A DNA stretch of 32,744 nt from a virus (IMGVR_UViG_3300028864_000541:1-32744); one strand, 5' to 3'. Positions 1 through 32,602 are shown, counted from the first letter of the stretch. Numbers and translations are program-made. The notes: generated by a model from the sequence alone, not told the origin.

Positions 1-236
1 TAACATTATTATCTTGTTCTGGAAACAATTTAGAGAAATTGCCTGAATTACCAGATGGCTTATTGGATTTATATTGTTATAATAATAATTTAAAAGAATT
101 ACCTATATTACCAATTACATTGAAATCGTTGGCTTGTTCTGGTAATAATTTACCATATACTAATTTAAAAGAATATGATGAGTGGTTAGAAATAAATCAT
201 CCTGATATTTTTATGACTAGAAAATTTAACATATAA
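1..236 (+). CDS. LRR protein with C-terminal KFNI tag (5'-truncated by window edge)
   Basis: The frame is open to the left edge of the window, so the N-terminus is missing. About 78 codons remain. They contain three LRR units with the cores LSCSGN, LYCYNN and LACSGN and the intervening LPxLPxxL signature. The usual C-cap follows (NLPYTNLKEYDEWLEINHP), then RKFNI-stop. The stop lies one base before the ATG of the next LRR gene. An internal TTG at 39 could be read as a start, but the LRR pattern continues upstream of it, so I treat the gene as partial. LRR solenoids normally bind protein ligands; the partner is unknown. Confidence 0.88.
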   Translation, partial: TLLSCSGNNLEKLPELPDGLLDLYCYNNNLKELPILPITLKSLACSGNNLPYTNLKEYDEWLEINHPDIFMTRKFNI

Positions 237-237
237 T

Positions 238-804
238 ATGAAATACATTAAAAAATTTGAAAATTCAAATATAGAATTGAATGATAATCATAAAAATTTA
301 ACTATATTGCATAAATTACCAAGAAATTTAGTAAAATTGGAATGCTCAGATAATAAATTGATTAATTTACCTACGTTACCAAAAACATTAGAATATTTAG
401 ATTGTTCTGGTAATAAATTAATTAAATTGCCTGATATACCAGATTCCTGTAAAAAATTGTATTGTTATAATAATAAATTAACTAAGTTGCCTAAATTGTC
501 ACAGAATTTAAAAATTATATCTTGCGCAGACAATAAATTAACAGAATTATCAGAGTTACCTGAATCATTAGATAAATTATATTGTGGTGAAAATAAATTG
601 ACAACTTTACCTAATTTACCAAGCAAATTAACTGTATTGTCTTGTAGATTTAATAAATTAACTGAGTTGCCTATTTTACCAGAAACAATAACAACATTGT
701 ATTGTGAAGGAAATGATTTAGGATATTCTGATTTGGATGGTTATTATGATTGGCTGGAAATTAATCATCCTGAAGTAGTTGATGCAAGTAAATTCAATAT
801 ATAA
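238..804 (+). CDS. Leucine-rich repeat protein, MKYIKKFE...KFNI tagged
   Basis: 188 residues. The N-terminal tag MKYIKKFE is followed by seven 20-residue LRR units (LECSDN, LDCSGN, LYCYNN, ISCADN, LYCGEN, LSCRFN, LYCEGN), each with the LPxLPxxLxxLxCxxNxL pattern of the short bacterial (YopM/IpaH-like) LRR class. A C-cap GYSDLDGYYDWLEINHPEVV and SKFNI-stop end it. There is no signal peptide or membrane segment. It is the last gene of its rightward unit and faces a convergent gene 3 bp away. Its terminal codons are AAA TTC AAT ATA, synonymous with but different from the usual AAA TTT AAC ATA, so the tag is kept even though no gene starts downstream. Confidence 0.92.
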   Translation: MKYIKKFENSNIELNDNHKNLTILHKLPRNLVKLECSDNKLINLPTLPKTLEYLDCSGNKLIKLPDIPDSCKKLYCYNNKLTKLPKLSQNLKIISCADNKLTELSELPESLDKLYCGENKLTTLPNLPSKLTVLSCRFNKLTELPILPETITTLYCEGNDLGYSDLDGYYDWLEINHPEVVDASKFNI

Positions 805-807
805 AAA

Positions 808-1203
808 TTATAAATTGAATTTGTCTGCTGTTAATATCATTTCTAATTCTTCAATTGTTTTACCAAATGCTTTTATATTTGTTTCATTTAGATGAATAAC
901 CTTATTTTTTTTAGAACCTAAATTAAAATAATCCCTAATTATATCTGGAATATTTTCATATTCAAAATAATTTGATATTTCAGGATGTTTGTTTGATATG
1001 TCATATGATACATAATATGTTCTTAAAGTCTTTCCGTTTACTACTACTTTTCCTCCATAATTTCTTATTCTACCAATATTATTAGTTAAAAAGTCATAAA
1101 TATCTCCTCCTAAATTGTAATTACTATTATCATATTCAAAAATAATATAATCATTTATTTTTGGCTCATTATTTGTGTTTTCATTGAATCTTTCTATTTT
1201 CAT
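808..1203 (-). CDS. GDYV-family small protein, KFNL tagged
   Basis: 131 residues from MKIERFNEN. A longer frame reaches 1269, but its 22 extra residues overlap the upstream gene and precede the family N-tag, so I start at 1203. The family landmarks are present in order: INDYIIFEYD (the GDYVIC position), NNIGRIRNYGG, YYVSYD, YENIPDIIRDYF, and a C-terminal EELEMILTADKFNL. The short beta-rich pattern with a G-D-Y-V/N-I-G-K-I pair suggests an SH3- or KOW-like barrel; that fold is my inference. It is the last gene of the leftward run and ends with the unusual codons AAA TTC AAT TTA. Confidence 0.88.
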   Translation of the reverse strand: MKIERFNENTNNEPKINDYIIFEYDNSNYNLGGDIYDFLTNNIGRIRNYGGKVVVNGKTLRTYYVSYDISNKHPEISNYFEYENIPDIIRDYFNLGSKKNKVIHLNETNIKAFGKTIEELEMILTADKFNL

Positions 1204-1205
1204 TA

Positions 1206-1523
1206 TTATATGTTGAATTTTCTGGATTGTAAAATAGTTTCTAAATCTTCTATGTTGTCTGACCAACATAATATTTCTTTCCTTGAAAAAGTAGTTGTAC
1301 CTTTATTGAAATATTTTTCTGTATCTTCTGGTATGTTTTCATATTGAACTACAAATGGATATTTATCTCCTCTATTAAATTCTATGCAAATACCAATATG
1401 ACTATTAACAAAAGTTCTAGATTTAAATGCTCCAACGTAATCATTAGATAAAATGTATTCTCCTACCATTGGAAAGTCTTTTTTATCAGACATTAATTTT
1501 TCAAACTCCTTTATATACTTCAT
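1206..1523 (-). CDS. GDYV-family small protein, MKYIKEFE...KFNI tagged
   Basis: 105 residues. It combines the N-tag style of the LRR genes (MKYIKEFE) with a GDYV-family core: VGEYILSNDYVG, NSHIGICIEF, YPFVVQYENIPEDTEKYF, FSRKEILCWSDNIEDLETIL, then QSRKFNI. This mix of tag and core types shows that the tag is independent of the core. Its stop is 2 bp from the next start. Confidence 0.9.
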   Translation of the reverse strand: MKYIKEFEKLMSDKKDFPMVGEYILSNDYVGAFKSRTFVNSHIGICIEFNRGDKYPFVVQYENIPEDTEKYFNKGTTTFSRKEILCWSDNIEDLETILQSRKFNI

Positions 1524-1525
1524 TG

Positions 1526-1870
1526 TTATAAGTTGAATTTATTTGTTTTTACTATATATTTTATCTTCTCCAAATCATCTCTTTTTATTTGAGTATATCC
1601 ATTATTAGGTAGATTATTTTTTATGTCTTCTATGCTTGCAAATGATGAATTATCAAAATATCCTACTAATAAATCTATTTTTGGCGTTCTTTTAAAATAT
1701 ATGAAAATTTCATATGTATTATCATGAGAATATATATAATGTTTTATTCTATTTTTTTCTAAATCATTTAAATCACGTATTAAAACTAACTCATCCTCTT
1801 TGCTATCTAAATTATAATTTTGGTAGTAGATATCAAATTCCCTACCTTCATTGAATCTTTCAATTTTCAT
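1526..1870 (-). CDS. Unrecognised core with MKIERFNE / KFNL tags
   Basis: 114 residues. The ends are the standard tags, but the centre lacks GDYV and YDNIP. Visible instead are a charged stretch DSKEDELVLIRDLNDLEKN, alternating strands (YEIFIYFKRTPKIDLLVGYF) and GYTQIKRDDLEKIKYIV near the end. The GYxQIKRxxxxKI piece recurs in the gene at 21201-21518, so the two probably share a domain. Its ATG overlaps the TAATG end of the upstream gene by one base. Function unknown. Confidence 0.88.
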   Translation of the reverse strand: MKIERFNEGREFDIYYQNYNLDSKEDELVLIRDLNDLEKNRIKHYIYSHDNTYEIFIYFKRTPKIDLLVGYFDNSSFASIEDIKNNLPNNGYTQIKRDDLEKIKYIVKTNKFNL

Positions 1871-2226
1871 TATAATGTATTATTATTTTCACTATTTCTT
1901 ATTGATTCTAATTCATTTTTATTGTCCCCCCAATATCTAATCTCACCGTTGAATGCATAAATTTCCTTGATATCATTATCAGATTCATAGTCACCATAAA
2001 CATCATCAATATAGCTGTAATTTATAGTATAAAGAACTTCATATTTTTTAATAGAATTATTGTTACCTCTATTTATTTTTTTATTTTGGTCGTCAATATT
2101 TGTTATTAATCCAATAGAATCATTTATATTCTTTTTGTCATGACGGTTATTTACATTTAGTAATACATAATTGCCTATCTCAGGCTCTCCATTGTTCAAA
2201 CTCTCATTAAATCTTTTAACTCTCAT
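1870..2226 (-). CDS. GDYV-family protein lacking the KFNI tag
   Basis: 118 residues with N-tag MRVKRFNES, then EIGNYVLLNVNNR, NDSIGLITNID, a YDNIP-equivalent region around YTINYSYIDDVYGDY, and IRYWGDNKNELESIRNS. Here the C-terminus is ENNNTL rather than KFNI/L. It is the only GDYV-family member in the window without the C-terminal tag. The reading frame is otherwise intact; I see no frameshift that would restore the tag. Confidence 0.87.
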   Translation of the reverse strand: MRVKRFNESLNNGEPEIGNYVLLNVNNRHDKKNINDSIGLITNIDDQNKKINRGNNNSIKKYEVLYTINYSYIDDVYGDYESDNDIKEIYAFNGEIRYWGDNKNELESIRNSENNNTL

Positions 2227-2228: not shown

Positions 2229-2570
2229 TTATATGTTATATTTTTTAGAAACTAAGATAATTTCCAATTTAGATTTATCCTTAGAAGAATATTTTATTTC
2301 TTCTCTTAAAAATCTGATAGCTGATTCATATTTATTGTCCAAGTAGCCAACATGTAATGATTCAGGTATGTTATCATATTGTACAACATATTTATCATCC
2401 CTACTTTTTTCTCCATTTATGTCTATTACTTTTCCAATATTATTATTTACAAGAATATTAAAGTCATCAAATTTATAATTTTCTGGATCATATTCATTGC
2501 ATATTACATAATCACCAATTTCAATTTTTTTCTTATTTATATTACTTTCATTGAATCTAATTATCTTCAT
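2229..2570 (-). CDS. GDYV-family small protein, KYNI variant tag
   Basis: 113 residues: MKIIRFNES, IEIGDYVICNEYD (about 18-30), NNNIGKVIDING, KYVVQYDNIPESLHVGY, FLREEIKYSSKDKSKLEIIL, ending KKYNI. The F-to-Y change in the tag is conservative. A rightward reading of this DNA (2379-2627) is a low-complexity shadow frame. The gene is 2 bp from its neighbours on both sides, as in a single transcript. Confidence 0.9.
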   Translation of the reverse strand: MKIIRFNESNINKKKIEIGDYVICNEYDPENYKFDDFNILVNNNIGKVIDINGEKSRDDKYVVQYDNIPESLHVGYLDNKYESAIRFLREEIKYSSKDKSKLEIILVSKKYNI

Positions 2571-2572: not shown

Positions 2573-2905
2573 TTATATATTAAATTTATTTGATTTTAGA
2601 ATTAATTCTAATTCTTTTTTATCTTGAGTCCAATATTTTATTTCAGTGCGCTTCATTCTTACTGTATTATCACTATTGAAAAAAATATGTAAATTATGTG
2701 GAATATCATAAAATCTAATAGCATACGGATGAGTTGGATATTTATCATAATCATTCTTTACATACATACCAATAGATGACATCATAAAATTATCAATGTC
2801 ACTAAAATCATTTATAGTACTATCATGATTGTCATTGCATATTACATAATCACCAATTTCTGGGTTTCCTTCATTTAAACTCTCATTAAATCTTATTATC
2901 TTCAT
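2573..2905 (-). CDS. GDYV-family small protein, KFNI tagged
   Basis: 110 residues: MKIIRFNESLN, GNPEIGDYVICND, MSSIGMYVKND, HPYAIRFYDIPHNLHIFF, MKRTEIKYWTQDKKELELIL, SNKFNI. The IRFYDIP segment replaces the common YDNIP. The N-terminal nine residues are the same as in the neighbouring gene at 2229-2570, which suggests local duplication. The start codon overlaps the TAATG end of the upstream gene. Confidence 0.9.
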   Translation of the reverse strand: MKIIRFNESLNEGNPEIGDYVICNDNHDSTINDFSDIDNFMMSSIGMYVKNDYDKYPTHPYAIRFYDIPHNLHIFFNSDNTVRMKRTEIKYWTQDKKELELILKSNKFNI

Positions 2906-3279
2906 TATATGTTAAATTTATTTGATATTGTTGATAGATAAATTGATTCTATATCTTCTTTATTTACTTTTTCAAAATCTGTGTTATTGAACCAATGTCT
3001 AACTTCTCCTAAATCTTTACGATCAGTCACATGTTTAAAATTGTGAGTATTGGCAAAATCATAGAATGTGTTAATTGAGTCGTTTATATATGAATATAAT
3101 ATAAAATTCCAACTTGAATCTACTCCTTCTTTATAATATATATCATATAATAAAAATCCAGATTTTATTAAGTCTCTAATATCATCATTTAATATTTCAA
3201 CTCCAATGTCATCACATTTATAAGTTTTTAGATATAATTTGAAATTGTTGATGCTTTCATTAAATCTATTAATCTTCAT
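2905..3279 (-). CDS. Unrecognised core with MKINRFNES / KFNI tags
   Basis: 124 residues. Between the tags I see DDIGVEILNDDIRDLIKSG, LLYDIYYKEGVDSSWNFILYSY, FYDFANTHNFKHVTDR and VRHWFNNTDFEKVNKEDIESIYL. The pattern 'YDIYY...I.Y.Y' also appears in the genes at 3647-4024 and 4987-5397, so these three may form one alpha/beta subfamily. No GDYV signature, membrane segment or catalytic motif is seen. Confidence 0.87.
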   Translation of the reverse strand: MKINRFNESINNFKLYLKTYKCDDIGVEILNDDIRDLIKSGFLLYDIYYKEGVDSSWNFILYSYINDSINTFYDFANTHNFKHVTDRKDLGEVRHWFNNTDFEKVNKEDIESIYLSTISNKFNI

Positions 3280-3281: not shown

Positions 3282-3644
3282 TTATAAGTTAAATTTTTTA
3301 GTTATTAAATTAAGTTCTAATTCTTCTTTGTTTTTAGAATAATCTAATATTAAACTATCTCCAAATAAACACAAATTGTTAACAATTGGTTTAATTTCAA
3401 TATCAGGATCATTATGAAATCTATTTAATATATCATCAGGTATGTTATCATATTTAACTTTAATATCATGACTATAACGATAAATATAATATATTTGACC
3501 TACATTATTATTTATAAAATTTATAAATTTTTTATCATCATCATCAGATGATGATCTTAACATTTTATTCGCATTTATTAAAACATAATCATCTTCACTA
3601 GGTTCATCATATTGTAGGCTATCATTAAATCTATTAATCTTCAT
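3282..3644 (-). CDS. GDYV-family small protein, KFNL tagged
   Basis: 120 residues: MKINRFNDS, EDDYVLINANK, an acidic insert SSSDDDDKKF, INNNVGQIYYIYR, IKVKYDNIPDDILNRF, YSKNKEELELNLITKKFNL. The Ser/Asp-rich insert between the first two strands is specific to this copy. It ends with a TTA leucine and lies 2 bp from the next start. Confidence 0.89.
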   Translation of the reverse strand: MKINRFNDSLQYDEPSEDDYVLINANKMLRSSSDDDDKKFINFINNNVGQIYYIYRYSHDIKVKYDNIPDDILNRFHNDPDIEIKPIVNNLCLFGDSLILDYSKNKEELELNLITKKFNL

Positions 3645-3646: not shown

Positions 3647-4024
3647 TTACAAGTTAAATTTATTTGATCTTAAAATAATTTCAATATCTTCTCTATTAGT
3701 ATTTTTATCAAAGTCATTATTTATTAATGTTTTTCTGAATCTTTCTACTGTACTTATTAATGAATACCATGTCAAATAATGATATTCATTTATCAGTCTT
3801 TCATCTTCTACATTTTTAGGATAACAATATAAGTAATATATATTAAAATCCATATCAACCTTAATATCATATTTTATATCATTAGATTCCAAAATATCTA
3901 TTATTTTTATTATCTTATGCGATATATTGATAATATTTTTATTTTCGTATCTATATTCTGCAAAATATATATTGTGATAAGGTTTATTATTTTCTACATT
4001 ATCAGTATTTTTTTTAATTATCAT
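3647..4024 (-). CDS. Unrecognised core, KFNL tagged, weak N-tag
   Basis: 125 residues starting MIIKKNTDNVENN, which lacks the F-[EN]-E part of the tag. The core has IIKIIDILESNDIKYDIKV, FNIYYLYCYPKN and YLTWYSLISTVERFRKTL, and ends with NREDIEIILRSNKFNL. It resembles the 'YDIYY' proteins nearby (2905-3279, 4987-5397). The presence of KFNL without a good N-tag suggests the C-tag is under its own constraint or was inherited from a duplicated gene. Confidence 0.85.
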   Translation of the reverse strand: MIIKKNTDNVENNKPYHNIYFAEYRYENKNIINISHKIIKIIDILESNDIKYDIKVDMDFNIYYLYCYPKNVEDERLINEYHYLTWYSLISTVERFRKTLINNDFDKNTNREDIEIILRSNKFNL

Positions 4025-4026: not shown

Positions 4027-4320
4027 TTATAAATTGAATTTATTAGTATTTGATAATAAATCTTTATTCATTTTTAATTCTTCTAAATCATGAGAATGTA
4101 GCAATATTTCATCCCTACTGTACATTTGGTTGTCATTAGCATCTCCTATCTGTATTTCATATGTATAATAACCAGTTGGACCTTCTACTATATAAACTAC
4201 CTCTCCTATGCAATAATCAAAGGTGTCTTTATGCCCTTTTCTCTTGCAAATTACATAATCATTCATCCAAATATCTGGATATTTAGAGTAAGTATCTTCA
4301 AATGTTTTTATATGATTCAT
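4027..4320 (-). CDS. GDYV-family small protein, KFNL tagged
   Basis: 97 residues, one of the shorter members: MNHIKTFEDTYSK, WMNDYVICKRKGHKDTF, YCIGEVVYIVEG, YYTYEIQIGD, MYSRDEILLHSHDLEELKM, SNTNKFNL. The YDNIP box is missing, shortening the middle. Its ATG overlaps the stop of the upstream gene (ATGA, 4 bp), a usual sign of translational coupling. Confidence 0.88.
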   Translation of the reverse strand: MNHIKTFEDTYSKYPDIWMNDYVICKRKGHKDTFDYCIGEVVYIVEGPTGYYTYEIQIGDANDNQMYSRDEILLHSHDLEELKMNKDLLSNTNKFNL

Positions 4321-4655
4321 ATATTAAATTTCTTAGCATTTATCATAGTTTCTAAATCATTTATATTTTTATTCCATAATTCAATCTCCCATTTTCCAAA
4401 TTGAAAATTATCAGTCTTGCCACTTTTTTTCGTGATTAAGTCATATTGCATTCTAAATTCACTGAAATTATCAGGAATATTATCATAATGAACAATATAT
4501 GGATAATTTTTATCTTCAGATATACTAACAATTTGACCTATTTTATCCTTTATAAATTTATTCCTTTTAATATTATTTGAAGATAATTTCGATACACAAT
4601 AAACATAATCACCAACTTCTGGATTATTTTCAAATGAGTTAAAATCGGTTATCAT
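4317..4655 (-). CDS. GDYV-family small protein, KFNI tagged
   Basis: 112 residues. The start MITDFNSFENN is a degenerate N-tag. Then come PEVGDYVYCVSK, IKDKIGQIVSISEDKNYPYIVHYDNIP (close to the family consensus) and WEIELWNKNINDLETMINAKKFNI. The stop is TGA within ATATGA, overlapping the next gene's ATG; the upstream junction is also a 4-bp overlap. Confidence 0.89.
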   Translation of the reverse strand: MITDFNSFENNPEVGDYVYCVSKLSSNNIKRNKFIKDKIGQIVSISEDKNYPYIVHYDNIPDNFSEFRMQYDLITKKSGKTDNFQFGKWEIELWNKNINDLETMINAKKFNI

Positions 4656-4984
4656 ACGTTGAATTTGTTAGTTTTTAATATTAGTTCTAATTTTTCCTTA
4701 TCTTTATCCCAGTATTTTATTGCTCTTCTAGCAATCTCACATTCATAGAAGCTTTTATCATTTTTAGTCTTTCTACTGAATTCATTTTTTAATTCTCTTG
4801 GTACGTCTTCATATTGAATAACATATATTTTCTGAAGATTATTCCATAAATAAGAAAAACTCAATTTTGAAATATTATTATTTATAAAATCATATAATTT
4901 TGTTTTTACATTTACTTCACATAAAATATAATCGCCATTCTCTGGCTCATCTTCTATGCTTTCATTAAATCTTTTTATGTTCAT
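4652..4984 (-). CDS. GDYV-family small protein, KFNV variant tag
   Basis: 110 residues: MNIKRFNESIEDEPENGDYILCEVN, FINNNISKLSFSYLW, IYVIQYEDVPRELKNEF, IARRAIKYWDKDKEKLELIL, KTNKFNV. The N-I-G motif is N-I-S here. The last residue is Val (GTA before TGA), one of two members of the window that end in neither I nor L, the other being KFNM at 5855-6187. Confidence 0.89.
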   Translation of the reverse strand: MNIKRFNESIEDEPENGDYILCEVNVKTKLYDFINNNISKLSFSYLWNNLQKIYVIQYEDVPRELKNEFSRKTKNDKSFYECEIARRAIKYWDKDKEKLELILKTNKFNV

Positions 4985-4986: not shown

Positions 4987-5397
4987 TTATATGTTAAATT
5001 TTCTTGATCTTATTCTCATCTTAAATGCTTCTAAATTTTGAATATTCTTTGAAGATACATTATCAAATTTGTCATATTTATTTAATAATTCTTTTTCTAT
5101 CTCATCTATCTCATCTATCTTCAATCCTAAATACATCTTATTTGTAAAATCACTATATAAATATTCCATTCCCCATAAAATATCACGTTGATTTATGTCA
5201 TATCTATTTTTGCTATTATTATAAATAAATGCATACACAATTGCAATATTTCTTAAATTGTAATAAATGTTATAATCAATATTTGAATTATCTAAATTAC
5301 TCAAATCTTCTATTAATTCATCATATGATTCATATTTTTTGGAATATAAATCGCATGTCTGTTGAGATTTTTCTTCATATGTCTTTATATTTTTCAT
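4987..5397 (-). CDS. Unrecognised helical core with MKNIKTYE / KFNI tags
   Basis: 136 residues. It is rich in Asp, Glu, Lys and Tyr: ESYDELIEDLSNLDNSNIDYNIYYNLRNIAIVY (read in pieces), then YDINQRDILWGMEYLYSDF and a probable helix DEIDEIEKELLNKYDKF, ending FKMRIRSRKFNI. The DYNIYY piece links it loosely to the 2905-3279 and 3647-4024 genes. No known catalytic motif is visible. Confidence 0.87.
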   Translation of the reverse strand: MKNIKTYEEKSQQTCDLYSKKYESYDELIEDLSNLDNSNIDYNIYYNLRNIAIVYAFIYNNSKNRYDINQRDILWGMEYLYSDFTNKMYLGLKIDEIDEIEKELLNKYDKFDNVSSKNIQNLEAFKMRIRSRKFNI

Positions 5398-5858
5398 ATA
5401 TTAAACTTATATATTTTTTTAGCCAGTATATACTCATTATATTTATCTGGATATAATTTCTTTAAAATACTAGCATTCTCAAAATTTAAATGATCAAACA
5501 TATACATACCTTTATGATCTCTTTCTCCCCAATATGCTCCTGCATCAGTCAGCATTTTTATTATTTCAATACAATATTCTCTATTACCTTTTGACGCTAA
5601 TATGATAGGAAACATTGGTGATTTATTTGGTAAATTAGGATCTGCTCCATTTTCAAGTAATTCCTTTATTATTATTATATTTTGATAAGAAACTGCCATT
5701 ATTAGAGGAGTGTTTCCAAACTGACTAAATATATTAACATTATCAAAAGAATCAATAACCCTTTTAATTGAATCTTTTTTATTAGAATAACTAATAATGG
5801 ACATTAATTCACCAATAGTATAATCATTAGAATTCTCAAAAGTCTTTAAATATTTCAC
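5394..5858 (-). CDS. Ankyrin-repeat protein with MKYLKTFE / KFNI tags
   Basis: 154 residues. After the N-tag MKYLKTFEN there are two recognisable ankyrin repeats: residues about 45-76 (GNTPLIMAVSYQN, then IKELLENGADPN) and about 78-111 (a SPMFPIILASKGN helix, then IIKMLTDAGAYW). The TPLxxA and LLxxGADPN motifs are diagnostic. A less regular segment follows and the protein ends YKFNI. Ankyrin repeats bind proteins, so together with the LRR genes this gives a second unrelated repeat scaffold carrying the same terminal tags. It overlaps both neighbours by 4 bp. Confidence 0.9.
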   Translation of the reverse strand: MKYLKTFENSNDYTIGELMSIISYSNKKDSIKRVIDSFDNVNIFSQFGNTPLIMAVSYQNIIIIKELLENGADPNLPNKSPMFPIILASKGNREYCIEIIKMLTDAGAYWGERDHKGMYMFDHLNFENASILKKLYPDKYNEYILAKKIYKFNI

Positions 5859-6187
5859 ATGTTAAATTTATTTGTTGAGATATTTAATTCTAATTCTTCT
5901 AATGTAGAACCAATTTCTAAAATATCTGTAACATAAAATAATTTTGATTTTATATTTTTATCACTAATATAATTAAAGTATGCACTAATAATATCAGGTA
6001 CATTTTCATATTTTACTACAATTGTAAATACCTCACCGTTTGAAAAAGTACCTATTTTTATAATTTCTCCTGGATTATTTTTAACAAAATTTGAAATAGA
6101 TTTTATTCCTACTGGTTCAATTAGTACATAATCTCCTACTTCTGGTACTTTTTTATTTATGCTCTCATTAAACTTTAATATTTTCAT
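5855..6187 (-). CDS. GDYV-family small protein, KFNM variant tag
   Basis: 110 residues: MKILKFNESINKKVPEVGDYVLIEP, FVKNNPGEIIKIG, FTIVVKYENVPDIISAYF, GSTLEELELNISTNKFNM. The N-I-G motif is N-P-G here. The last codon is ATG followed by TGA, so the tag methionine and the stop overlap the start of the next gene. That may explain the M. Confidence 0.89.
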   Translation of the reverse strand: MKILKFNESINKKVPEVGDYVLIEPVGIKSISNFVKNNPGEIIKIGTFSNGEVFTIVVKYENVPDIISAYFNYISDKNIKSKLFYVTDILEIGSTLEELELNISTNKFNM

Positions 6188-6188: not shown

Positions 6189-6518
6189 TTATATGTTAAA
6201 TTTTTTAGTCTTTATGATAGTTTCTAATTCTTCTTTATTCTTAGAAAAATATAATATTTCTTCTTTTTTAAATGGTATCGTATTATAATCATTATTATTA
6301 TTTGTATAGCTACTTAACTGACTTGGTAAATCATCATATTTTATTGAATATGGATAATTTATCATATCTTTACTCGTTGTATCTATAATAATGCCAATAT
6401 TTACACTTGTAAATTCATTTAATGATTTCTCACCTGATTCATCACTATGACAAATTACATAATCTCCAATTTCTGGCTCATTTTCATTTATATTCTCATT
6501 AAATTTTCTAACTTTCAT
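6189..6518 (-). CDS. GDYV-family small protein, KFNI tagged; first gene of its run
   Basis: 109 residues: MKVRKFNENINENEPEIGDYVICHSDES, TSVNIGIIIDTTSKDM, YPYSIKYDDLPSQL, PFKKEEILYFSKNKEELETII, KKFNI. It is the first of the 808-6518 block. The 47 bp separating it from the SCY-family gene upstream include AAATATATAATAATATG immediately before the start, similar to the TTAATATATA element of other unit-leading genes. Confidence 0.9.
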   Translation of the reverse strand: MKVRKFNENINENEPEIGDYVICHSDESGEKSLNEFTSVNIGIIIDTTSKDMINYPYSIKYDDLPSQLSSYTNNNNDYNTIPFKKEEILYFSKNKEELETIIKTKKFNI

Positions 6519-7460: not shown

Positions 7461-7461
7461 G

Positions 7462-8777: not shown

Positions 8778-8812
8778 AAAAAGTTCAACTTAATTATAAG
8801 TTGAACTTTTTT
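8777..8812. terminator. Bidirectional factor-independent terminator overlapping a KFNL coding end
   Basis: GTTCAACTT and AAGTTGAAC form a 9-bp stem around AATTAT, flanked by A6-7 and T6, so it works on both strands between convergent genes. The right arm plus loop is the last codons of the leftward gene (AAA AAG TTC AAC TTA TAA, i.e. KKFNL-stop). Confidence 0.8.
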
Positions 8813-14741: not shown

Positions 14742-14756
14742 TAATATTTTTATTTC

Positions 14757-14766: not shown

Positions 14767-14768
14767 AA

Positions 14769-14796: not shown

Positions 14797-14804
14797 GTTT
14801 ATTT

Positions 14805-24407: not shown

Positions 24408-24986
24408 CTATATGTTGTATTTTCTACTATTAATAACCTCAGGATGATTAATAGAAAGCCAATCATTATAACCATCCAAACCATCATAAGGTAAATTATT
24501 ATGATCACAAACTAAATATAGTAATGACTTAGGTAAATTTAATGGTAACTCACGTAAATCATTATAAGAACATTCTAATAACTCTAACGTATCAGGTAAC
24601 TCTGGTAACTCACTTATGTTATTCTCAGAACAATTTAACTTGATTAATCCATTAGGTAATGTAGACAAACTTTTTAATTTGTTGTCAGAACAAAATATGT
24701 ATTTTAATCCTTCAGTTAAGCCAGATAAATCTTCTAACCTGTTGCTGTTGCAATTTAAATAATCTAATGAAATAGGTAACTCAGGTAACTTAGTTAATCT
24801 GTTGTTAAAAAAACTTAAATTTACTAATCCATCAGGTAAGCCAGATATTGTAGTCAATCTGTTGTTATAACAAAACAAATTTATTAATGTACTAGGTAAC
24901 TCTGGTAATACCTCTAAACCCTTATCACTTAAATCTAACTCTGTTATTGGAATAATAAATTTCTCAAACTGCTTTACATGCTTCAT
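24408..24986 (-). CDS. LRR protein, KYNI variant tag
   Basis: 192 residues, eight units (LDLSDKG, LFCYNN, LSFFNN, LNCNSN, IFCSDN, LNCSEN, LECSYN, LVCDHN) after MKHVKQFEKFI. Some units have SGLPDGL or SGLTEGL rather than LPELPDGL. Cap YDGLDGYNDWLSINHPEVIN, then SRKYNI. It stands alone between two intergenic signal regions, so it is probably its own transcript. Confidence 0.92.
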   Translation of the reverse strand: MKHVKQFEKFIIPITELDLSDKGLEVLPELPSTLINLFCYNNRLTTISGLPDGLVNLSFFNNRLTKLPELPISLDYLNCNSNRLEDLSGLTEGLKYIFCSDNKLKSLSTLPNGLIKLNCSENNISELPELPDTLELLECSYNDLRELPLNLPKSLLYLVCDHNNLPYDGLDGYNDWLSINHPEVINSRKYNI

Positions 24987-25077: not shown

Positions 25078-25587
25078 CTATATACTAAATTTAGAAGCAG
25101 CATATACATCTGGATGATTCTCCTTTATCCATCTCCTGTAACCATGTATATTATTATAAGGTAATCCATTACCATCACAATATAAATATTCTAATGAAGA
25201 AGGTAAATGTAAAGGCAACTCAGTTAATTTATTGTTATTACACGTCAATTCAATTAATGACTCTGGTAATATAGGCAGTGAAGTTAAATTGTTATCATCA
25301 CATCCTAAATATTCTAATCCATTAGGTAAATTAGGTAACTCACTTAATCCATTACCATTACAACCTAAATCAACTAATGTATCAGGTAATTCAGGTAACG
25401 AACTTAAATTATTATGATCACAATATAAAACTGTTAAACCATTAGGTAACTCTGGTAACTCCTTTAATCTATTACCACTACACCTTAACTCCCTTAATTC
25501 ATTAGGTAAATCTGGTAATACTTCTAAATCAGCTAATGATACATTTATATCTGTAACCATACTCTCAAACTGCTTAATATGCTTCAT
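25078..25587 (-). CDS. LRR protein, KFSI variant tag
   Basis: 169 residues, seven units (INVSLAD, LRCSGN, LYCDHN, LGCNGN, LGCDDN, LTCNNN, LYCDGN) after MKHIKQFESMVT. The sixth unit is followed by the longer LTELPLHLPSSL. Cap YNNIHGYRRWIKENHPDVYA, then ASKFSI. It is followed by a signal region rather than by a start codon, and it is the one copy with N-to-S in the tag. Confidence 0.92.
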   Translation of the reverse strand: MKHIKQFESMVTDINVSLADLEVLPDLPNELRELRCSGNRLKELPELPNGLTVLYCDHNNLSSLPELPDTLVDLGCNGNGLSELPNLPNGLEYLGCDDNNLTSLPILPESLIELTCNNNKLTELPLHLPSSLEYLYCDGNGLPYNNIHGYRRWIKENHPDVYAASKFSI

Positions 25588-25590: not shown

Positions 25591-26097
25591 CTATATGTTA
25601 AATTTTCTACTATTAAATACCTCAGGATGATGTATTGACATCCAATGATTATAACTAATCAAATCCTTATAAGGTAACCCATTACCACGGCAATTTAAAA
25701 GTCTTAATCCATCAGGTAATATAGGCAATGACTTTAATAAATTACCTGTACAATATAACTCCTTTAAACCCTCAGGTAAATTAGGTAACTCCATTAAATT
25801 GTTGTCAGAACAATATAACTCCCTTAATCCATCAGGCAACTTAGGTAACGATGTTAATTCATTTATACTGCAATATAAATATACTAATGATTCAGGTAAC
25901 TCTGGTAATGATACTAATTTATTACTACCACAATATATTGTAATTAAACCATTAGGTAAAGTAGGTAATGATACCAATAAATTGCTGTTGCACTCCAATG
26001 TCTCTATAGTAGAAGGCAAATCAGGTAATAATTCTAAATCCTTGTGAGAATATACTAATTTCCTAACTATCTCTTCATTTACTTTTAAATGCTTCAT
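25591..26097 (-). CDS. LRR protein, KFNI tagged; first of its transcript
   Basis: 168 residues from MKHLKVNEEIV; a frame extended to 26145 adds 16 hydrophobic residues, but the TTAATATATA element at 26103-26112 and the tag favour 26097. Seven units: LVYSHKD, LECNSN, IYCGSN, LYCSIN, LYCSDN, LYCTGN, LNCRGN. Cap YKDLISYNHWMSIHHPEVFN, then SRKFNI. Confidence 0.9.
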   Translation of the reverse strand: MKHLKVNEEIVRKLVYSHKDLELLPDLPSTIETLECNSNLLVSLPTLPNGLITIYCGSNKLVSLPELPESLVYLYCSINELTSLPKLPDGLRELYCSDNNLMELPNLPEGLKELYCTGNLLKSLPILPDGLRLLNCRGNGLPYKDLISYNHWMSIHHPEVFNSRKFNI

Positions 26098-26260: not shown

Positions 26261-26539
26261 CTATATGTTAAATTTCATAGAATTAAGTATAACCTCTATT
26301 GATTCTAAATTATTAGAATAATGCTTTATGTCCTGTAAATTGCAATAATACCTCTCTATTCCAATATAAAAATATAAAAGATGATATAAACCATCAGAAA
26401 TTGATGTTATCTTACCAAAGTTGTTTGATATGAAATTTATTTCATCATCTCCATTACCTATATATTCACCATAACATATAACATAATCTCCTACCTGCGG
26501 TATATTCTCAGTCATTTCAATTTCCATTTCAATTTCCAT
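26261..26539 (-). CDS. GDYV-family small protein, KFNI tagged
   Basis: 92 residues: MEIEMEIEMTENIPQVGDYVIC in pieces, ISNNFGKITSISDG, and an IEVILNSMKFNI end. The first residues are a tandem repeat of MEIE (12-bp duplication), so any of three in-frame ATGs (26539, 26527, 26515) may be used. It matches the two rightward genes at 27360-27913 in length and in the YCNLQDI/LCNLQCI strand, so it is probably their diverged inverted duplicate. Confidence 0.87.
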   Translation of the reverse strand: MEIEMEIEMTENIPQVGDYVICYGEYIGNGDDEINFISNNFGKITSISDGLYHLLYFYIGIERYYCNLQDIKHYSNNLESIEVILNSMKFNI

Positions 26540-27359: not shown

Positions 27360-27626
27360 ATGATAACAATTTTTAAGACATTTGAAATGAATGAATATAA
27401 ACCTGATGTAGGAGACTATGTCATTTGTTCTGGAGAATTTTCATCAAATAAAAATTTCATAACAACTCATATTGGTAAGATAAGACGTATTGATAGTTGG
27501 CAATATAAAATAGAATATAAATATAGTGAAAATGATTACTTATGTAATTTACAGTGCATCTTATATTGGTCCAACAATAAAGAAGAATTAGAATTAATAT
27601 TAAATACAAAAAAATTTAACATATGA
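27360..27626 (+). CDS. GDYV-family small protein, KFNI tagged
   Basis: 88 residues: MITIFKTFEMNEYKPDVGDYVIC in pieces, FITTHIGKIRRIDSWQYKIEYKY, LCNLQCILYWSNNKEELELIL, TKKFNI. Short version without the YDNIP segment. It overlaps the next gene by 4 bp (ATATGA), and the shared FKTFEMNE/IKTFEMNE starts show tandem duplication. Confidence 0.9.
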   Translation: MITIFKTFEMNEYKPDVGDYVICSGEFSSNKNFITTHIGKIRRIDSWQYKIEYKYSENDYLCNLQCILYWSNNKEELELILNTKKFNI

Positions 27627-27913
27627 AATATATAAAGACATTTGAAATGAATGAGAATAAGCCAGAAGTAGGAGACTATGTCATTTGCACATATATTGAT
27701 GATTCTGATGATAGTAGAGATTATGTCAATAAATTTACTTCTTCTCATGTTGGAAAAATAATTGAGATATTAATAGATATTGACTATCCTTATAAAGTAG
27801 AATATTCAAATAATAATAATATTATGATATTTAGTGATAGTGAGATTTTATATTATAGTAAGGATAAAGAAGAATTAGAATCAATTCTGCAATCAAACAA
27901 ATTTAACATATAA
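27623..27913 (+). CDS. GDYV-family small protein, KFNI tagged
   Basis: 96 residues: MKYIKTFEMNENKPEVGDYVIC in pieces, FTSSHVGKIIEILIDIDYPYKVEYSNN, FSDSEILYYSKDKEELESIL, QSNKFNI. The DNA from the start through the GDYV box is almost identical to that of the preceding gene (ACATTTGAAATGAATGA and GGAGACTATGTCATTTG shared). Confidence 0.9.
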   Translation: MKYIKTFEMNENKPEVGDYVICTYIDDSDDSRDYVNKFTSSHVGKIIEILIDIDYPYKVEYSNNNNIMIFSDSEILYYSKDKEELESILQSNKFNI

Positions 27914-27942: not shown

Positions 27943-28263
27943 ATGAATCATATAAAAAAATTAAATGAATTTACGAATTACTCTGATGATTTGGGTGAAA
28001 CATTACCACGTGAGTTATTAAACACGGGTGAGGATAGTGATGATATTGGTGCTGAAGATAGTTCTGATATATTATCGTTATCACCTAAATTAAGAGCAGT
28101 GATTGGTCAAATAATGAATTTGAGTGCTCAGGGTGAATATGACGAAGTAGAAGATATATATTCAACATTAACTGATGAAGAAGTAGATAGAATAACTGAT
28201 CTATTAGAACGATTGACTGACATATTTTCCAATCAATTTAGGAATAAGGTAAGGCAGAATTAA
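27943..28263 (+). CDS. Acidic helical protein with N-tag-like start, no KFNI
   Basis: 106 residues, strongly acidic. It starts MNHIKKLNEF, similar to the N-tag, followed by a Ser/Asp/Glu-rich disordered stretch (TGEDSDDIGAEDSSDIL) and a helical C-terminal half (LSPKLRAVIGQIMNLSAQGEYDEVEDIYSTLTDEEVDRITDLLERL, in pieces) ending RNKVRQN. The acidic N-terminal half and helical tail resemble small phage head or regulatory proteins, but I recognise no family. The 29-bp gap before it and the terminator after it close the rightward unit. Confidence 0.85.
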   Translation: MNHIKKLNEFTNYSDDLGETLPRELLNTGEDSDDIGAEDSSDILSLSPKLRAVIGQIMNLSAQGEYDEVEDIYSTLTDEEVDRITDLLERLTDIFSNQFRNKVRQN

Positions 28264-28723: not shown

Positions 28724-29271
<548 letters not shown>

Positions 29272-29288
29272 CTACAAAGATAATACAT

Positions 29289-29768: not shown

Positions 29769-29802
29769 AAAAAAAAGAAGAACTAAATGTTCTTCTTTTT
29801 TT
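29769..29802 (-). terminator. Factor-independent terminator after the fibre/GDCV unit
   Basis: AAGAAGAAC / GTTCTTCTT stem, TAAAT loop, flanked by A7 and T7. It directly follows the stop of the leftward gene at 29801 and probably works in both directions. Confidence 0.78.
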
Positions 29803-30055
29803 ATATGTTAAATTTATTAGTTATTTTACTGATGTCATAACTTTCAATTTGATCTGGTGTCATTAGATATAATACTTTCTCTTCAAAATAAAGTGTAGGA
29901 TATTCTTCTAATGAATATAAAAATTCTTTTCTATATTTAGAATATTCTGCTTCAGATACAACTCCTCTTCTACCTCCTGTTGATATAACACAATCTCCTA
30001 CTTTAAATTTACTCATACTATTATCAATCTTTTCAAACTCCTTAATGTATTTCAT
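29801..30055 (-). CDS. GDYV-like small protein (GDCV subfamily), KFNI tagged
   Basis: 84 residues: MKYIKEFEKIDNSMSKFKVGDCVISTGGRRGVVSEAEY in pieces, FLYSLEEYPTLYFEEKVLYLMTPDQIESYDIS, then ITNKFNI. The KVGDxVxSTxxxxGxV start with LMTPxQIExY at the end is shared only with the gene at 31770-32039, so those two form a subfamily lying on both sides of the fibre gene and inverted repeat. It is 17 bp downstream of the fibre gene. Confidence 0.9.
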   Translation of the reverse strand: MKYIKEFEKIDNSMSKFKVGDCVISTGGRRGVVSEAEYSKYRKEFLYSLEEYPTLYFEEKVLYLMTPDQIESYDISKITNKFNI

Positions 30056-31522: not shown

Positions 31523-31570
31523 ACTGTTATACTAATCTTAAATAAGTTAAAATGTTTTAACAGTTACGTA

Positions 31571-31606
31571 TTACCCCGCTCTCGGGCTCCATGATCCTAC
31601 GTCCAT
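31571..31606 (-). CDS. Possible leader micro-ORF (11 codons)
   Basis: On the minus strand ATG to TAA encodes MDVGSWSPRAG immediately downstream of the right-arm promoter. It overlaps a CCCG-agag-CGGG hairpin. See the partner at 31201-31239. Confidence 0.25.
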   Translation of the reverse strand: MDVGSWSPRAG

Positions 31607-31616
31607 GTTATCAAGA

Positions 31617-31646
31617 CAAAGATAACGCTTTTAATTGATTTTACAA
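31617..31646 (-). promoter_or_regulatory. Inward-facing promoter in the right arm (TTG-N19-TATCTTTG)
   Basis: On the minus strand TTTTG (31648-31644), 19 bases, TATCTTTG (31624-31617). It fires left through the centre toward the fibre gene at 31074. The two promoters face each other, so their leaders would be antisense over about 420 bp. Confidence 0.62.
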
Positions 31647-31754
31647 AATTTTATATGGTTAAGAATAAATAAAGATTGTTAAATTTAACATATCACCACA
31701 GTAATATTTACAAAGTAAATACCTGCAACAGCAGTAATGTTCGATAAATAAATT

Positions 31755-31764
31755 TTAATATATA
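31755..31764 (+). promoter_or_regulatory. TTAATATATA element before the last rightward unit
   Basis: Exact decamer in ATTTTAATATATAACAATATG, five bases before the start codon at 31770. Confidence 0.42.
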
Positions 31765-31769
31765 ACAAT

Positions 31770-32039
31770 ATGAGACACATTAAAAACATTAAACAATTTA
31801 AATCAAGTAGAAATTCTAAATTTAAAAAAGGAGATTATATCATGTCAACTAAAAGTAATAAAAAAGGTATTATAGATAATATAATATCTTCTGATAAACC
31901 TGAAGATTTTGAATTTGCATATCATTTAAAAGATTATAAAGATAATATTTATCTTAAAGATACAAGTATAATATTAATGACACCAGAACAAATTGAACAA
32001 TATAACCTTGAAAAATCAACTGATAAATTTAACCTATGA
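31770..32039 (+). CDS. GDYV-like small protein (GDYIMST subfamily), KFNL tagged
   Basis: 89 residues: MRHIKNIKQFKSSRNSKFKKGDYIMST in pieces (the tag is a slightly lengthened MRHIKNIKQF), KKGIIDNII, FEFAYHLKDYKDNIYLKD, SIILMTPEQIEQYNLEK, STDKFNL. Paralog of 29801-30055 on the other side of the inverted repeat. It overlaps the following LRR gene by 4 bp. Confidence 0.9.
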   Translation: MRHIKNIKQFKSSRNSKFKKGDYIMSTKSNKKGIIDNIISSDKPEDFEFAYHLKDYKDNIYLKDTSIILMTPEQIEQYNLEKSTDKFNL

Positions 32040-32602
32040 AATATATTAAACACTTCGAAAGATCTTATGTAACAGTAAATTATTCTAATCAACATTTAAC
32101 TGAACTTCCTATATTACCTGATATATTATATGAATTGTATTGCTCAAATAACGACATATATAAGCTACCTACATTACCTGATACATTAATATATATTACC
32201 TGCGCTAATAATAATCTTAATGAGCTACCTGAGTTGCCAATATCATTGAAACATTTATTTTGCTATAATAATAAATTGAATGAACTACCTAAATTACCTG
32301 ACAGCTTATTAACATTGTCATGTAGTAGTAATAACATTACTGAACTTCCTATACTACCTAATAAATTAGAGTCATTGTCATGTAGTGGTAACTATATATC
32401 TGAGCTACCTATGCTACCTAATACATTGATTGAACTGAATTGTAGTGACAATAACCTTACCATGCTACCTATACTACCTGATAGCTTAAAAACATTGTAC
32501 TGTAATGGTAATGAACTACCATACACTAACCTCAAAGAGTATAATGAATGGCTAACGATAACCCATCCTGAAGTAATCAACGCTAAGAAGTTTAACATAT
32601 AA
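32036..32602 (+). CDS. LRR protein, MKYIKHFE...KFNI tagged
   Basis: 188 residues, eight units (VNYSNQH, LYCSNN, ITCANN, LFCYNN, LSCSSN, LSCSGN, LNCSDN, LYCNGN). The spacer LPILPDxL and ELPxLPNTL alternate. Cap YTNLKEYNEWLTITHPEVIN, then AKKFNI, with AAG TTT AAC ATA codons. The 3' half has visibly more C and G at third positions than the LRR genes at 19-25 kb. It is followed by non-coding DNA, so the KFNI here does not serve a next gene. Confidence 0.92.
   Translation: MKYIKHFERSYVTVNYSNQHLTELPILPDILYELYCSNNDIYKLPTLPDTLIYITCANNNLNELPELPISLKHLFCYNNKLNELPKLPDSLLTLSCSSNNITELPILPNKLESLSCSGNYISELPMLPNTLIELNCSDNNLTMLPILPDSLKTLYCNGNELPYTNLKEYNEWLTITHPEVINAKKFNI

What the first reader, a model, noticed from the sequence alone, without database searches (positions are those of the whole stretch)
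1..32602. Bipartite-tag protein set: 45 genes share an N-terminal MK-x-I-K-x-FE and C-terminal KFNI around unrelated cores
Seen directly: 45 ORFs end in K[FY][NS][ILVM], most also start MK[YHI]IKxFE or MKIxRFNES, yet the cores include LRR, a GDYV SH3/KOW-like fold, ankyrin repeats and several unknown folds; a GNAT enzyme has the N-tag only. Unrelated folds do not converge on both ends by chance, so the ends act as an address. Established: phage T4 internal proteins carry an N-terminal capsid-targeting sequence beginning MKTYQEF (from memory), cleaved by the prohead protease, and are injected with DNA. Inference: these proteins may be packaged and delivered into the host, with protein-binding scaffolds (LRR, ankyrin) as inhibitors or decoys. 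The C-tag would be new. Alternatives: a secretion or degradation signal, a polymerisation motif, or inheritance of ends through cassette duplication.
Basis: partly seen in the sequence, partly recalled or inferred. Interest (0 to 1): 0.92.

Follow-up and report, generated by a model that had tools for sequence, protein, structure and literature searches.

The report
Two-ended packaging tag in huge phages
A giant bacterial virus puts the same short start and the same short ending on dozens of otherwise unrelated proteins; the start resembles the label other phages use to load proteins into their heads for delivery into the host, and the ending looks like a second, previously unseen part of that address.

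Summary
Confirmed: 45 of 712 stop-terminated open segments in the window end K[FY][NS][ILVM], most with MKxIKxFE, MKIxRFNE or MITNFKxFE starts. The window is 99.9% identical to part of a 105-kb phage contig. Four related contigs of 214-330 kb have 59-101 such genes each; N- and C-tags co-occur (81 observed, 17.7 expected, of 542) around 85 clusters of cores.

The peptide is selected: 51 of 51 orthologue pairs (median identity 64%) keep the tag Asn, though its codon differs in 18. The C-tag has genome-wide dialects (22 of 22 KYNL in one phage, 58 of 59 with F in another) that follow the phage rather than the gene, pointing to one reader per phage.

Relatives bearing these tags have a T4-like portal, prohead protease and capsid protein, close to a 735-kb huge phage. 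The N-tag resembles T4's capsid-targeting sequence. In cultured relative PAU, 4 of 5 proteins noted 'internal capsid protein' have a like start; two 'internal capsid vertex' proteins do not.

Best reading: a two-ended packaging address. Virion location, cleavage and C-tag function are unproved.

The parts
39..236 (+). C-tagged LRR gene, 5' part outside window (open from base 3); ends RKFNI
238..804 (+). LRR, MKYIKKFEN ... SKFNI
808..1203 (-). GDYV family, MKIERFNEN ... DKFNL
1206..1523 (-). GDYV family, MKYIKEFEK ... RKFNI
1526..1870 (-). unknown core, MKIERFNEG ... NKFNL
1870..2226 (-). GDYV family with N-tag MRVKRFNES but no C-tag (ends ENNNTL)
2229..2570 (-). GDYV family, MKIIRFNES ... KKYNI
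2573..2905 (-). GDYV family, MKIIRFNES ... NKFNI; modelled, pLDDT 87, first ten residues 56
2905..3279 (-). unknown core, MKINRFNES ... NKFNI
3282..3644 (-). GDYV family, MKINRFNDS ... KKFNL
3647..4024 (-). unknown core, C-tag only as read (MIIKKNTDN ... NKFNL)
4027..4320 (-). GDYV family, MNHIKTFED ... NKFNL
4317..4655 (-). GDYV family, MITDFNSFE ... KKFNI
4652..4984 (-). GDYV family, MNIKRFNES ... NKFNV
4987..5397 (-). unknown core, MKNIKTYEE ... RKFNI
5394..5858 (-). ankyrin repeats, GTG start, MKYLKTFEN ... YKFNI
5855..6187 (-). GDYV family, MKILKFNES ... NKFNM
6189..6518 (-). GDYV family, MKVRKFNEN ... KKFNI
8068..8382 (+). GDYV family, MKYIKQYEE ... NKFNL
8794..9129 (-). GDYV family, MKKLKLIEI ... 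KKFNL
9126..9431 (-). GDYV family, no clear N-tag, ... KKFNI
9428..9790 (-). GDYV family, MKINNFNDS ... KKFNI
9884..10510 (-). LRR, MKYIKKFES ... RKFNL
10512..11261 (-). LRR, MKYIKKFES ... KKFNI
11263..11949 (-). LRR, MKYINKYYT ... RKFNI
11957..12331 (-). LRR, MKHIKIFEK ... KKFNI
12328..12777 (-). LRR, MKYIKMFEK ... NKFNI
19195..19881 (-). LRR, MKYIKKFEG ... SKFNI
19878..20291 (-). GNAT acetyltransferase with N-tag only (MKYIKSYEK ... KKLKS)
20294..20695 (-). unknown core, MKYIKKFET ... NKFNI
20698..21198 (-). LRR, MKYIKEFEG ... NKFNI
21201..21518 (-). unknown core, MKYIKEFEG ... TKFNI
21521..22108 (-). LRR, MKYIKKFEH ... RKFNI
22111..22629 (-). LRR, MKYIKRFNK ... NKFNI
22632..23081 (-). LRR, MKYIKSFEK ... 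NKFNI
23084..23524 (-). LRR, MKYIKRFES ... KKFNI; modelled, residues 1-7 under pLDDT 50
23527..23907 (-). LRR, MKYIKRFDS ... NKFNI
23910..24296 (-). LRR, MRYIKKFEH ... KKFNI
24408..24986 (-). LRR, MKHVKQFEK ... RKYNI
25078..25587 (-). LRR, MKHIKQFES ... SKFSI
25591..26097 (-). LRR, MKHLKVNEE ... RKFNI
26261..26539 (-). GDYV family, no clear N-tag ... MKFNI
27360..27626 (+). GDYV family, MITIFKTFE ... KKFNI
27623..27913 (+). GDYV family, MKYIKTFEM ... NKFNI; 4-base overlap with the gene before
27943..28263 (+). 106-aa protein with a CTS-like start MNHIKKLNEF and no C-tag
29801..30055 (-). unknown small core, MKYIKEFEK ... NKFNI
31770..32039 (+). unknown small core, MRHIKNIKQ ... DKFNL
32036..32602 (+). 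LRR, MKYIKHFER ... KKFNI

Best explanation
The ends are a two-part protein address of a jumbo phage related to the largest known phages. The N-terminal part (MKxIKxFE and variants) is a capsid-targeting sequence of the T4 kind: a short flexible peptide that docks client proteins on the prohead scaffold before the shell closes (inferred; supported by the T4-like head genes of tagged relatives, the resemblance at residues 4 and 7, and the like start of PAU internal capsid proteins). The C-terminal part (a helix ending A/T/S-N-K-F-N-I/L) is a second docking determinant, so far seen only in one phage clade, read by a single partner that each phage encodes, perhaps a scaffold, inner-capsid or portal-associated protein (inferred from the genome-wide dialects). 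Clients are a fast-changing set of small proteins (LRR, ankyrin, SH3-like and many unknown) that would enter the host with the DNA and neutralise host factors, as T4 IPI does (inferred). Whether the N-tag is then cut off after Glu8 is open.
For: Chance excluded: 101 of 542 genes in G003 end K[FY][NS][ILVM], 0.26 expected; N and C tags co-occur, 81 against 17.7 expected of 542 (G003) and 54 against 11.9 of 360 (G004), while ORFs outside called genes in G003 have 0 of 1412 N and 3 of 1412 C. Peptide selection: 51 orthologue pairs between G003 and G004 with the tag in at least one member all keep [KNQ][FY]N[ILVM] in both; the Asn codon differs in 18 of 51, against 58 of 336 at kept Asn elsewhere in the same genes. 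Varied cores: 85 clusters among 266. One reader: G029 22 of 22 KYNL, G004 58 of 59 with F; F/Y split over 16 phage groups chi2 254, 0 of 2000 permutations reach it; 18 of 21 Y-phage clients with a homologue in F-phages have one ending [KNQ]FN. Head: portal and protease of PAU and PTm1 match G021, G022 and G029 genes at E 1e-43 to 1e-48 and 1e-22 to 1e-24, the MCP; a gene with both tags lies between portal and protease in G021 and one beside the portal in G029. T4: ipII and ipIII start MKTYQEFIAE; residues 4 and 7 target, 8 and 10 are for processing (PMC9026906, passages). Unsupervised counts in G003 give MKYxKxF 37 times against 0.02 expected, MKYIK 25 and MKYLK 22. C-tagged G003 protein MKTYQQFNEM is the orthologue of G004 MKYIKEYEDK. 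PAU: 4 of 5 'internal capsid protein' notes and the scaffold gp152 start MKx[LI]xxLYE; 18 of 273 called genes do; p 5e-5, partly post hoc. Models: the N-tag is the least confident part of otherwise confident folds.
Against: No virion proteomics for these phages. The PAU pattern was written after I had seen three of the four matching proteins, the basis of the notes is not given in the record and I did not find it, and the two PAU proteins noted 'internal capsid vertex protein' (gp1, gp10) and gp70 have no such start. In the main N-tag class the residue two before Glu8 is mostly K, T or R, which does not fit a hydrophobic-x-Glu site, and [ILMF]xE is not enriched in residues 9-24 (47 of 157, against 39 of 157 and 49 of 156 in interior stretches). 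Around 80 sister-phage MCP loci 49 of 1398 genes have the N-tag, one per 29 kb, the same as the 22 matches in the 635 kb of LR745206: no concentration at head genes. The strict N-tag pattern is absent from LR756501, Lak-A2, PAU and PTm1 and the C-tag is near background in them, so the two parts are separable. Some phages mix F and Y (G021 2 F and 4 Y, G022 6 F and 4 Y). The last codon is constrained at nucleotide level (Ile codon changed in 0 of 8 pairs against 130 of 482).
Confidence: 0.53

Rival explanations
1. The shared ends are only inherited homology arms: genes are duplicated and shuffled as cassettes, recombination between junctions (C-tag, stop, nearby or overlapping ATG, N-tag) keeps the ends alike, and the peptides have no job.
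For: Many tagged genes are tandem with gaps of a few bases or ATGA overlaps; combined junction patterns find many relatives; the form AAATTTAACATATAA makes up 15 of the 45 ends in the window.
Against: The 45 ends have 24 different DNA forms. Orthologues at 64% median identity keep the peptide while its Asn and Phe codons change more often than elsewhere in the same genes (18 of 51 and 13 of 44 against 58 of 336 and 37 of 228). Tags are kept on convergent genes (804/808) and on genes with no coupled gene downstream (19 of 39 in the window). F changes to Y across genomes in homologous genes.
Confidence: 0.12
2. The C-tag codons are a translation-initiation element for the next gene (overlapping ATGA, AAC-NTA), so the peptide is a by-product.
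For: In G004 the Asn codon is AAC in 25 of 34 coupled but 6 of 25 uncoupled tags (p 2e-4); last codon NTA in 35 of 39, 95 of 101 and 57 of 59 (window, G003, G004).
Against: No such link in G003 (p 0.66) or the window (p 0.73); tags persist without a coupled gene downstream; KYNL replaces KFNI throughout G029. At most a second layer of constraint.
Confidence: 0.08
3. The tags address proteins inside the infected cell, not in the virion: to a phage compartment, the membrane, a degradation machine or a shared scaffold of the phage.
For: Dialects fit any single reader; LRR and ankyrin binding scaffolds also suit intracellular decoys; the strict class lacks a good protease site; N-tagged genes are not concentrated at head genes; a second, mutually exclusive C-terminal motif exists in the same genomes, as if ends mark classes of proteins.
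Against: Most PAU proteins noted internal capsid protein, and its scaffold, have the like start; one orthologue pair swaps MKYIKEYE with MKTYQQFNE, close to the T4 form.
Confidence: 0.27

Closest known systems
T4 internal proteins IPI, IPII, IPIII and their capsid-targeting sequence (MKTYQEFIAE)
   Same: N-terminal, about 8-10 residues, MK start, hydrophobic residues at 4 and 7, Glu near the end, on small poorly conserved proteins; T4-type head and prohead protease in tagged relatives.
   Different: 59-101 C-tagged clients per large contig instead of three; an added C-terminal tag; Glu at 8 rather than 10 and no hydrophobic residue two places before it in the main class.
Sphingomonas (Sphingobacterium) phage PAU MK[TS][LI]xxLYE proteins
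   Same: Same start layout on 18 called genes, 9 of them between 106 and 114 kb around portal, protease and MCP; 4 of 5 'internal capsid protein' notes and the scaffold.
   Different: LYE gives an L-x-E site and often a second one follows (KLNE); no shared C-terminal end seen; gp1, gp10 (internal vertex) and gp70 lack it.
Ejection proteins of giant phages of the phiKZ/SPN3US kind
   Same: Many proteins packaged with the DNA; protease cuts after Glu.
   Different: Propeptides of 124-127 residues and more for several proteins (PMC5694885, passages), no short shared tags at both ends.
   Same: Homologous MCP, protease, portal and other large proteins; three of them have the N-tag pattern (22, 22, 18 matches).
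   Different: C-tag pattern near background (8-13 matches, controls 2-10); strict N-tag pattern absent from the 735-kb genome and Lak-A2.

Membership tests
T4-type capsid-targeting sequence (CTS) | N-terminal peptide of about 10 residues with the targeting residues at 4 and 7 | tested here: met
   By resemblance, not by function. Unsupervised counts in G003: MKYxKxF 37 (0.02 expected), MKYIK 25, MKYLK 22. In 157 strict-class proteins (positions 4, 7 and 8 limited by the pattern) K2 149, Y/H3 152, E8 153; orthologue swap with MKTYQQFNE; T4 peptides from the record; positions 4/7 from PMC9026906 passages
T4-type capsid-targeting sequence (CTS) | Processing site: hydrophobic-x-Glu, cut after Glu | tested here: inconclusive
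   Glu8 near invariant, but P3 mostly K/T/R in the strict class (157); FNE (34) and NFK (26) classes give F-N-E and [LI]-[FY]-E; no extra site in residues 9-24
T4-type capsid-targeting sequence (CTS) | Phage has a T4-like portal, prohead protease and MCP with propeptide | tested here: met
   Met for relatives G021, G022, G029, which carry all three with tagged genes; for the window's own phage only inferred. PAU MCP is 585 aa, 520 mature by N-terminal sequencing (PMC5646251, passages), within one residue of E64|N65 in ALMEN
T4-type capsid-targeting sequence (CTS) | Like-tagged proteins known inside capsids of a relative | tested here: met
   4 of 5 PAU proteins noted 'internal capsid protein'; 0 of 2 noted 'internal capsid vertex protein'; pattern partly post hoc, experimental basis of the notes not seen
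T4-type capsid-targeting sequence (CTS) | Tagged proteins present in virions and injected | not testable with these tools
   needs virion mass spectrometry
Gene-cassette arrays kept by end homology | Shared ends conserved as DNA | tested here: not met
   Asn codon differs in 18 of 51, Phe codon in 13 of 44 conserved tag positions between G003 and G004; Lys (1 of 44) and the last Ile codon (0 of 8) hardly change
phiKZ-type ejection proteins | Long N-terminal propeptides (about 100 residues) | tested here: not met
   In two families the first core strand begins at residue 13-20; other families not modelled
Phage-nucleus import signals | Nucleus-forming phage with chimallin and a spindle | not tested
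   no search for those genes was made

The most novel reading that the evidence does not exclude
A virus uses a two-ended address code: a T4-like N-terminal capsid-targeting peptide plus a C-terminal peptide read by one co-evolving phage receptor, so that some 60-100 structurally diverse effector proteins are marked for loading per phage genome, with the C-terminal word drifting as a phage-specific dialect (KFN[IL], KYNL, KYNI) across its clients together.
Probability: 0.42. Interest if true: 0.92.

Novelty: new variant of a known kind. Interest (0 to 1): 0.8.

Why it matters
If right, some of the largest phages carry a whole arsenal of pre-made proteins into the cell, and the arsenal can be read from sequence: any gene with both ends is a candidate anti-host protein. 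It would make the function of about a sixth of the genes of these contigs testable at once, give a minimal two-peptide tag for loading cargo into very large capsids, and offer a clean case of one receptor driving the parallel evolution of dozens of unrelated proteins.

Tried and rejected
Curated head families PF03420 (protease) and PF07230 (portal) were found in 0 of 9 records and PF07068 (Gp23) in 1 of 9 (G007); for the first two nothing rang in the controls either, so this does not show absence. The head genes were found instead with PTm1 proteins and then alignments of huge-phage MCPs. No phage record in INPHARED matched the GDYV protein tested, and only one unannotated 1.9-kb record the LRR protein tested.

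A promoter or terminator role of the ends was thought of but not scanned for. The translation-coupling idea was tested and is at most partial. A first count of [ILMF]xE in residues 5-24 (120 of 217 tagged, 201 of 663 untagged) looked like enrichment but is due to the tag itself; beyond residue 8 there is none. Concentration of N-tagged genes near head genes of sister phages was looked for and not found.

Limits of the counts: genes were called by my own simple script, so gene totals and starts are approximate; its start choice undercounts N-tags, and it missed 6 of the window's 45 tagged ORFs. Cluster numbers are single-linkage BLASTP at 1e-3 on trimmed cores, so remote relatives split. G004, G005 and G015 share near-identical genes and were not treated as independent. 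Only 9 of 542 G003 genes and 1 of G005 were compared with PHROGs. In one search I used 59 loci (58 of the 110 loci L325-L434, plus L267), leaving out mainly contigs already held under G handles. In one search the 16 phage groups were chosen; three mixed groups were kept, but G021, G022 (mixed) and some small mixed contigs (3300029998_000037, 3300009502_000053, 3300028738_000050 and others) were left out, so the heterogeneity figure is descriptive.

Literature: the listings showed nothing on a C-terminal packaging tag or these tagged arrays; only open-licence papers are held, and titles and abstracts were all I saw of most. Passages were read of PMC9958956, PMC9026906, PMC5646251, PMC5694885 and PMC7162821; no whole paper and no supplementary file.

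Full report
What the window is. G000 is a 32,744-base virus record. It is 99.94% identical along its whole length to bases 24232-56973 of a 105-kb record, G009. It holds fibre-like genes, one with a T4 gp9/10-like N-terminus and one with a Fib_succ_major domain, among arrays of small genes. Larger related contigs found by a C-tag/N-tag junction pattern were pulled and genes called with my own script: G003 330 kb, G004 214 kb, G005 222 kb, G015 256 kb.

The observation. 45 of 712 stop-terminated open segments of at least 20 codons end K[FY][NS][ILVM]. Terminal occurrences exceed the composition expectation by more than two orders of magnitude: 39 of 48 called genes against 0.02 in the window, 101 of 542 against 0.26 in G003, 59 of 360 against 0.18 in G004. 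The N-tag has three classes: MKxIKxFE, MKIxRFNE and MITNFKxFE. N and C tags are strongly tied: 81 genes with both against 17.7 expected in G003, 54 against 11.9 in G004 (Fisher p 6e-62 and 4e-41). ORFs outside called genes in G003 show 0 of 1412 N-tags and 3 of 1412 C-tags. The C-tag is longer than four residues: [AST]-[NKD]-K-F-N-[IL], preceded by a stretch rich in E, L and I; the second-last residue is Asn in 272 and Ser in 1 of 273 non-redundant proteins (the pattern allowed N or S).

Cores. 266 non-redundant tagged cores form 85 clusters (sizes 85, 27, 23, 6, 5, 4 and smaller); the three largest are the GDYV family, LRR and ankyrin (Pfam for LRR and ankyrin). In the window 44 cores fall in 10 clusters, LRR 18 and GDYV 17. 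AlphaFold2 models of a GDYV protein (mean pLDDT 87) and an LRR protein (92) are confident except at the N-tag (first-ten mean 56; residues 1-7 under 50) and somewhat lower at the end (80 for the last block; 61 for the last six). The GDYV model matches photosystem I chain E (SH3-like) weakly (best E 0.012), with no confident viral match.

Peptide or DNA. Between G003 and G004, 51 reciprocal-best pairs carry the tag in at least one member, 44 in both by the strict pattern, and all 51 in both by [KNQ][FY]N[ILVM]; median identity is 64.3% against 70.7% for 167 untagged pairs. The tag Asn is identical in 51 of 51 while its codon differs in 18; elsewhere in the same genes kept Asn differ in codon in 58 of 336. 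For Phe it is 13 of 44 against 37 of 228. For Lys it is 1 of 44 against 40 of 413, and for the terminal Ile 0 of 8 against 130 of 482. So the ends are not recently copied DNA and the peptide is under selection, while the last codon (mostly NTA) is also held at nucleotide level, as expected where NTATGA overlaps the next start. The AAC codon is linked to such coupling in G004 (25 of 34 against 6 of 25, p 2e-4) but not in G003 or the window.

Dialects. In G029, 22 of 22 C-tags are KYNL; in G004 58 of 59 have F, with I and L equally common (28 each); the 3300042991 loci have 23 of 23 with Y, 21 of them KYNI. Over 16 phage groups, chosen after a first look, the F/Y split is very uneven (chi2 254, 15 df; 0 of 2000 permutations reach it). 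Of 67 Y-phage clients, 21 have a homologue in F-phages (median core identity 38%); 18 of these end [KNQ]FN, 2 KYN, 1 otherwise. Some phages are mixed (3300029983_000084 9 Y and 4 F; G021 4 Y and 2 F; G022 4 Y and 6 F). The word mostly follows the phage, not the gene. The simplest cause is one reader per phage with which the clients co-evolve (inference).

The phage and its head. A 1144-aa protein of G003 matches the 735-kb LR756501, other 634-642-kb huge phages, Lak, PAU and PTm1, and an 817-aa protein of G005 matches LR756500, LR756501 and LR756503. An MCP search reached contigs from the same metagenomes as the tagged phages. G021, G022 and G029 have an MCP (610-615 aa) with a conserved [ML]NE|N site, a fused prohead protease-scaffold (771-790 aa) and a portal; portal and protease match PAU and PTm1 proteins at E 1e-43 to 1e-48 and 1e-22 to 1e-24. 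In G021 a gene with both tags (43938-44276, MKIAKFNE...SEKYNL) lies between portal and protease; G029 carries head genes and 22 K[FY]N[ILVM]-ended genes (of 203) on one contig, one directly beside the portal on the other strand. In an MCP tree of 32 rows these contigs fall in one supported clade of 13 (99/99), next to the group of the 735-kb phage; within the fetched loci 3 of these 13 have a gene with both tags, 0 of the 12 other IMG/VR rows. The C-tag pattern stays near background in the eight named relatives (12, 8, 10, 13, 10, 14, 1, 1 against controls of 5, 5, 2, 10, 4, 6, 0, 1), while the N-tag pattern occurs 22, 22, 18 and 10 times in LR745206, LR756502, LR756504 and LR756500 and not in LR756501, Lak-A2, PAU or PTm1. 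That the window's own phage has this head is an inference: no single contig joins them.

Link to capsid targeting. T4 ipII and ipIII begin MKTYQEFIAE and ipI MKTFKEF. For IPIII, residues 4 and 7 carry targeting and 8 and 10 processing, and the first ten residues were enough for incorporation into the head (PMC9026906, passages). Without a preset pattern, MKYxKxF is the start of 37 G003 genes (0.02 expected), with I or L at 4 in most (MKYIK 25, MKYLK 22). In the strict class of 157 (I/L/V at 4, F/Y at 7 and E/D/N at 8 set by the pattern) K is at 2 in 149, Y or H at 3 in 152 and E at 8 in 153. Some C-tagged proteins start in the T4 manner: MKTYQQFNEM, MKTYIQFNEN, MKTFIQFNET, and the first is the orthologue of a G004 protein starting MKYIKEYEDK. 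In PAU 18 of 273 called genes start MKx[LIV]xx[LF][YFL][ED], 9 of them between 106 and 114 kb around the head genes, with differing codons. They include the scaffold gp152 and 4 of the 5 proteins noted 'internal capsid protein' (gp142, gp154, gp199, gp270; not gp70); hypergeometric p 5e-5, but the pattern was written after three of the four had been seen, and gp1 and gp10, noted 'internal capsid vertex protein', lack it. PAU's MCP is cut at or within one residue of ALME|N, an L-x-E site like LYE and LNE in its tags. Proteases of this kind cut after Glu (PMC5694885, passages).

Against. The strict class has K, T or R two places before Glu8 in most, no enrichment of [ILMF]xE in residues 9-24 (47 of 157 against 39 of 157 and 49 of 156), and only 49 of 1398 genes around 80 sister MCP loci have the N-tag, one per 29 kb as in LR745206 as a whole. 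The tag may therefore be uncut, or the protease may differ. No experiment shows these proteins in virions.

A control inside the window: a paralogous family WFxxKFxSCY (6566-7959 and 28301-29669, six ORFs) sits among the tagged genes and has neither end, so the ends are not simply what small genes of this phage look like. A second motif, K[LI]xK[LI] within the last 11 residues, marks 47 of 527 genes in G003 and 46 of 345 in G004 (1.2 and 1.4 expected from interior stretches); the 93 proteins fall into 59 clusters and none has the KFN tag or the strict N-tag.

Verdict. The feature is real, the peptides are selected, and the C-tag behaves like a word read by one partner. The N-tag is most likely a T4-type capsid-targeting sequence (about 0.7); that both ends together are a packaging address is my best reading (0.53 for the whole). 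It is a new variant of a known kind, on an unusual scale and with a C-terminal part for which I saw no description in the listings named under Tried and rejected.

Noticed in passing
L043-L059 (G003), L060-L070 (G004), L317-L324 (G029): A second C-terminal motif, K[LI]xK[LI] within the last 11 residues, on 47 of 527, 46 of 345 and 16 of 200 genes (0.6-1.4 expected), 59 sequence clusters in G003+G004, never together with the KFN tag or the strict N-tag. Function unknown; looks like a rival class mark.
   Followed up: partly
L046:1590-7059 (G003 61590-67059) and G004 78380-78778: Seven G003 proteins and one G004 protein share a start like MKIR[NKTS]GFVSNSSSSSF with differing continuations: another N-terminal tag.
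   Followed up: no
window 6566-7959 and 28301-29669: Six untagged paralogues with WFxxKFxSCY near the start; no PHROGs match for the two tested and no Pfam match for the one tested; one homologue in G004 at 58238.
   Followed up: no
window 12858-16643: Two long fibre-like genes with the same start (T4_gp9_10_N for the one tested) and dozens of NSIGSxF-like repeats; the window's repeats match other repeats of G009 at 76-84%.
   Followed up: no
G004 tag junctions, for example L061:13595-14630: The C-tag Asn codon is AAC in 31 of 59 tags in G004 against 457 of 5732 Asn codons elsewhere, and the last codon is mostly NTA; the AAC bias is linked to coupling with the next gene in G004 but not in G003 or the window.
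   Followed up: partly
L133 and L437 (phage PAU 106-114 kb): Six tagged genes next to the portal, protease and MCP (gp143, gp145, gp146, gp149, gp150, gp153) carry no note but share the start of the noted internal capsid proteins; they are predicted internal proteins.
   Followed up: partly
L134-L213 (MCP loci): A gene directly after the MCP in several sister phages starts MKYLKYFES or the like and continues like an NFACT-R domain (family name recalled, not searched); another N-tagged gene of about 157 aa sits just before the portal.
   Followed up: no
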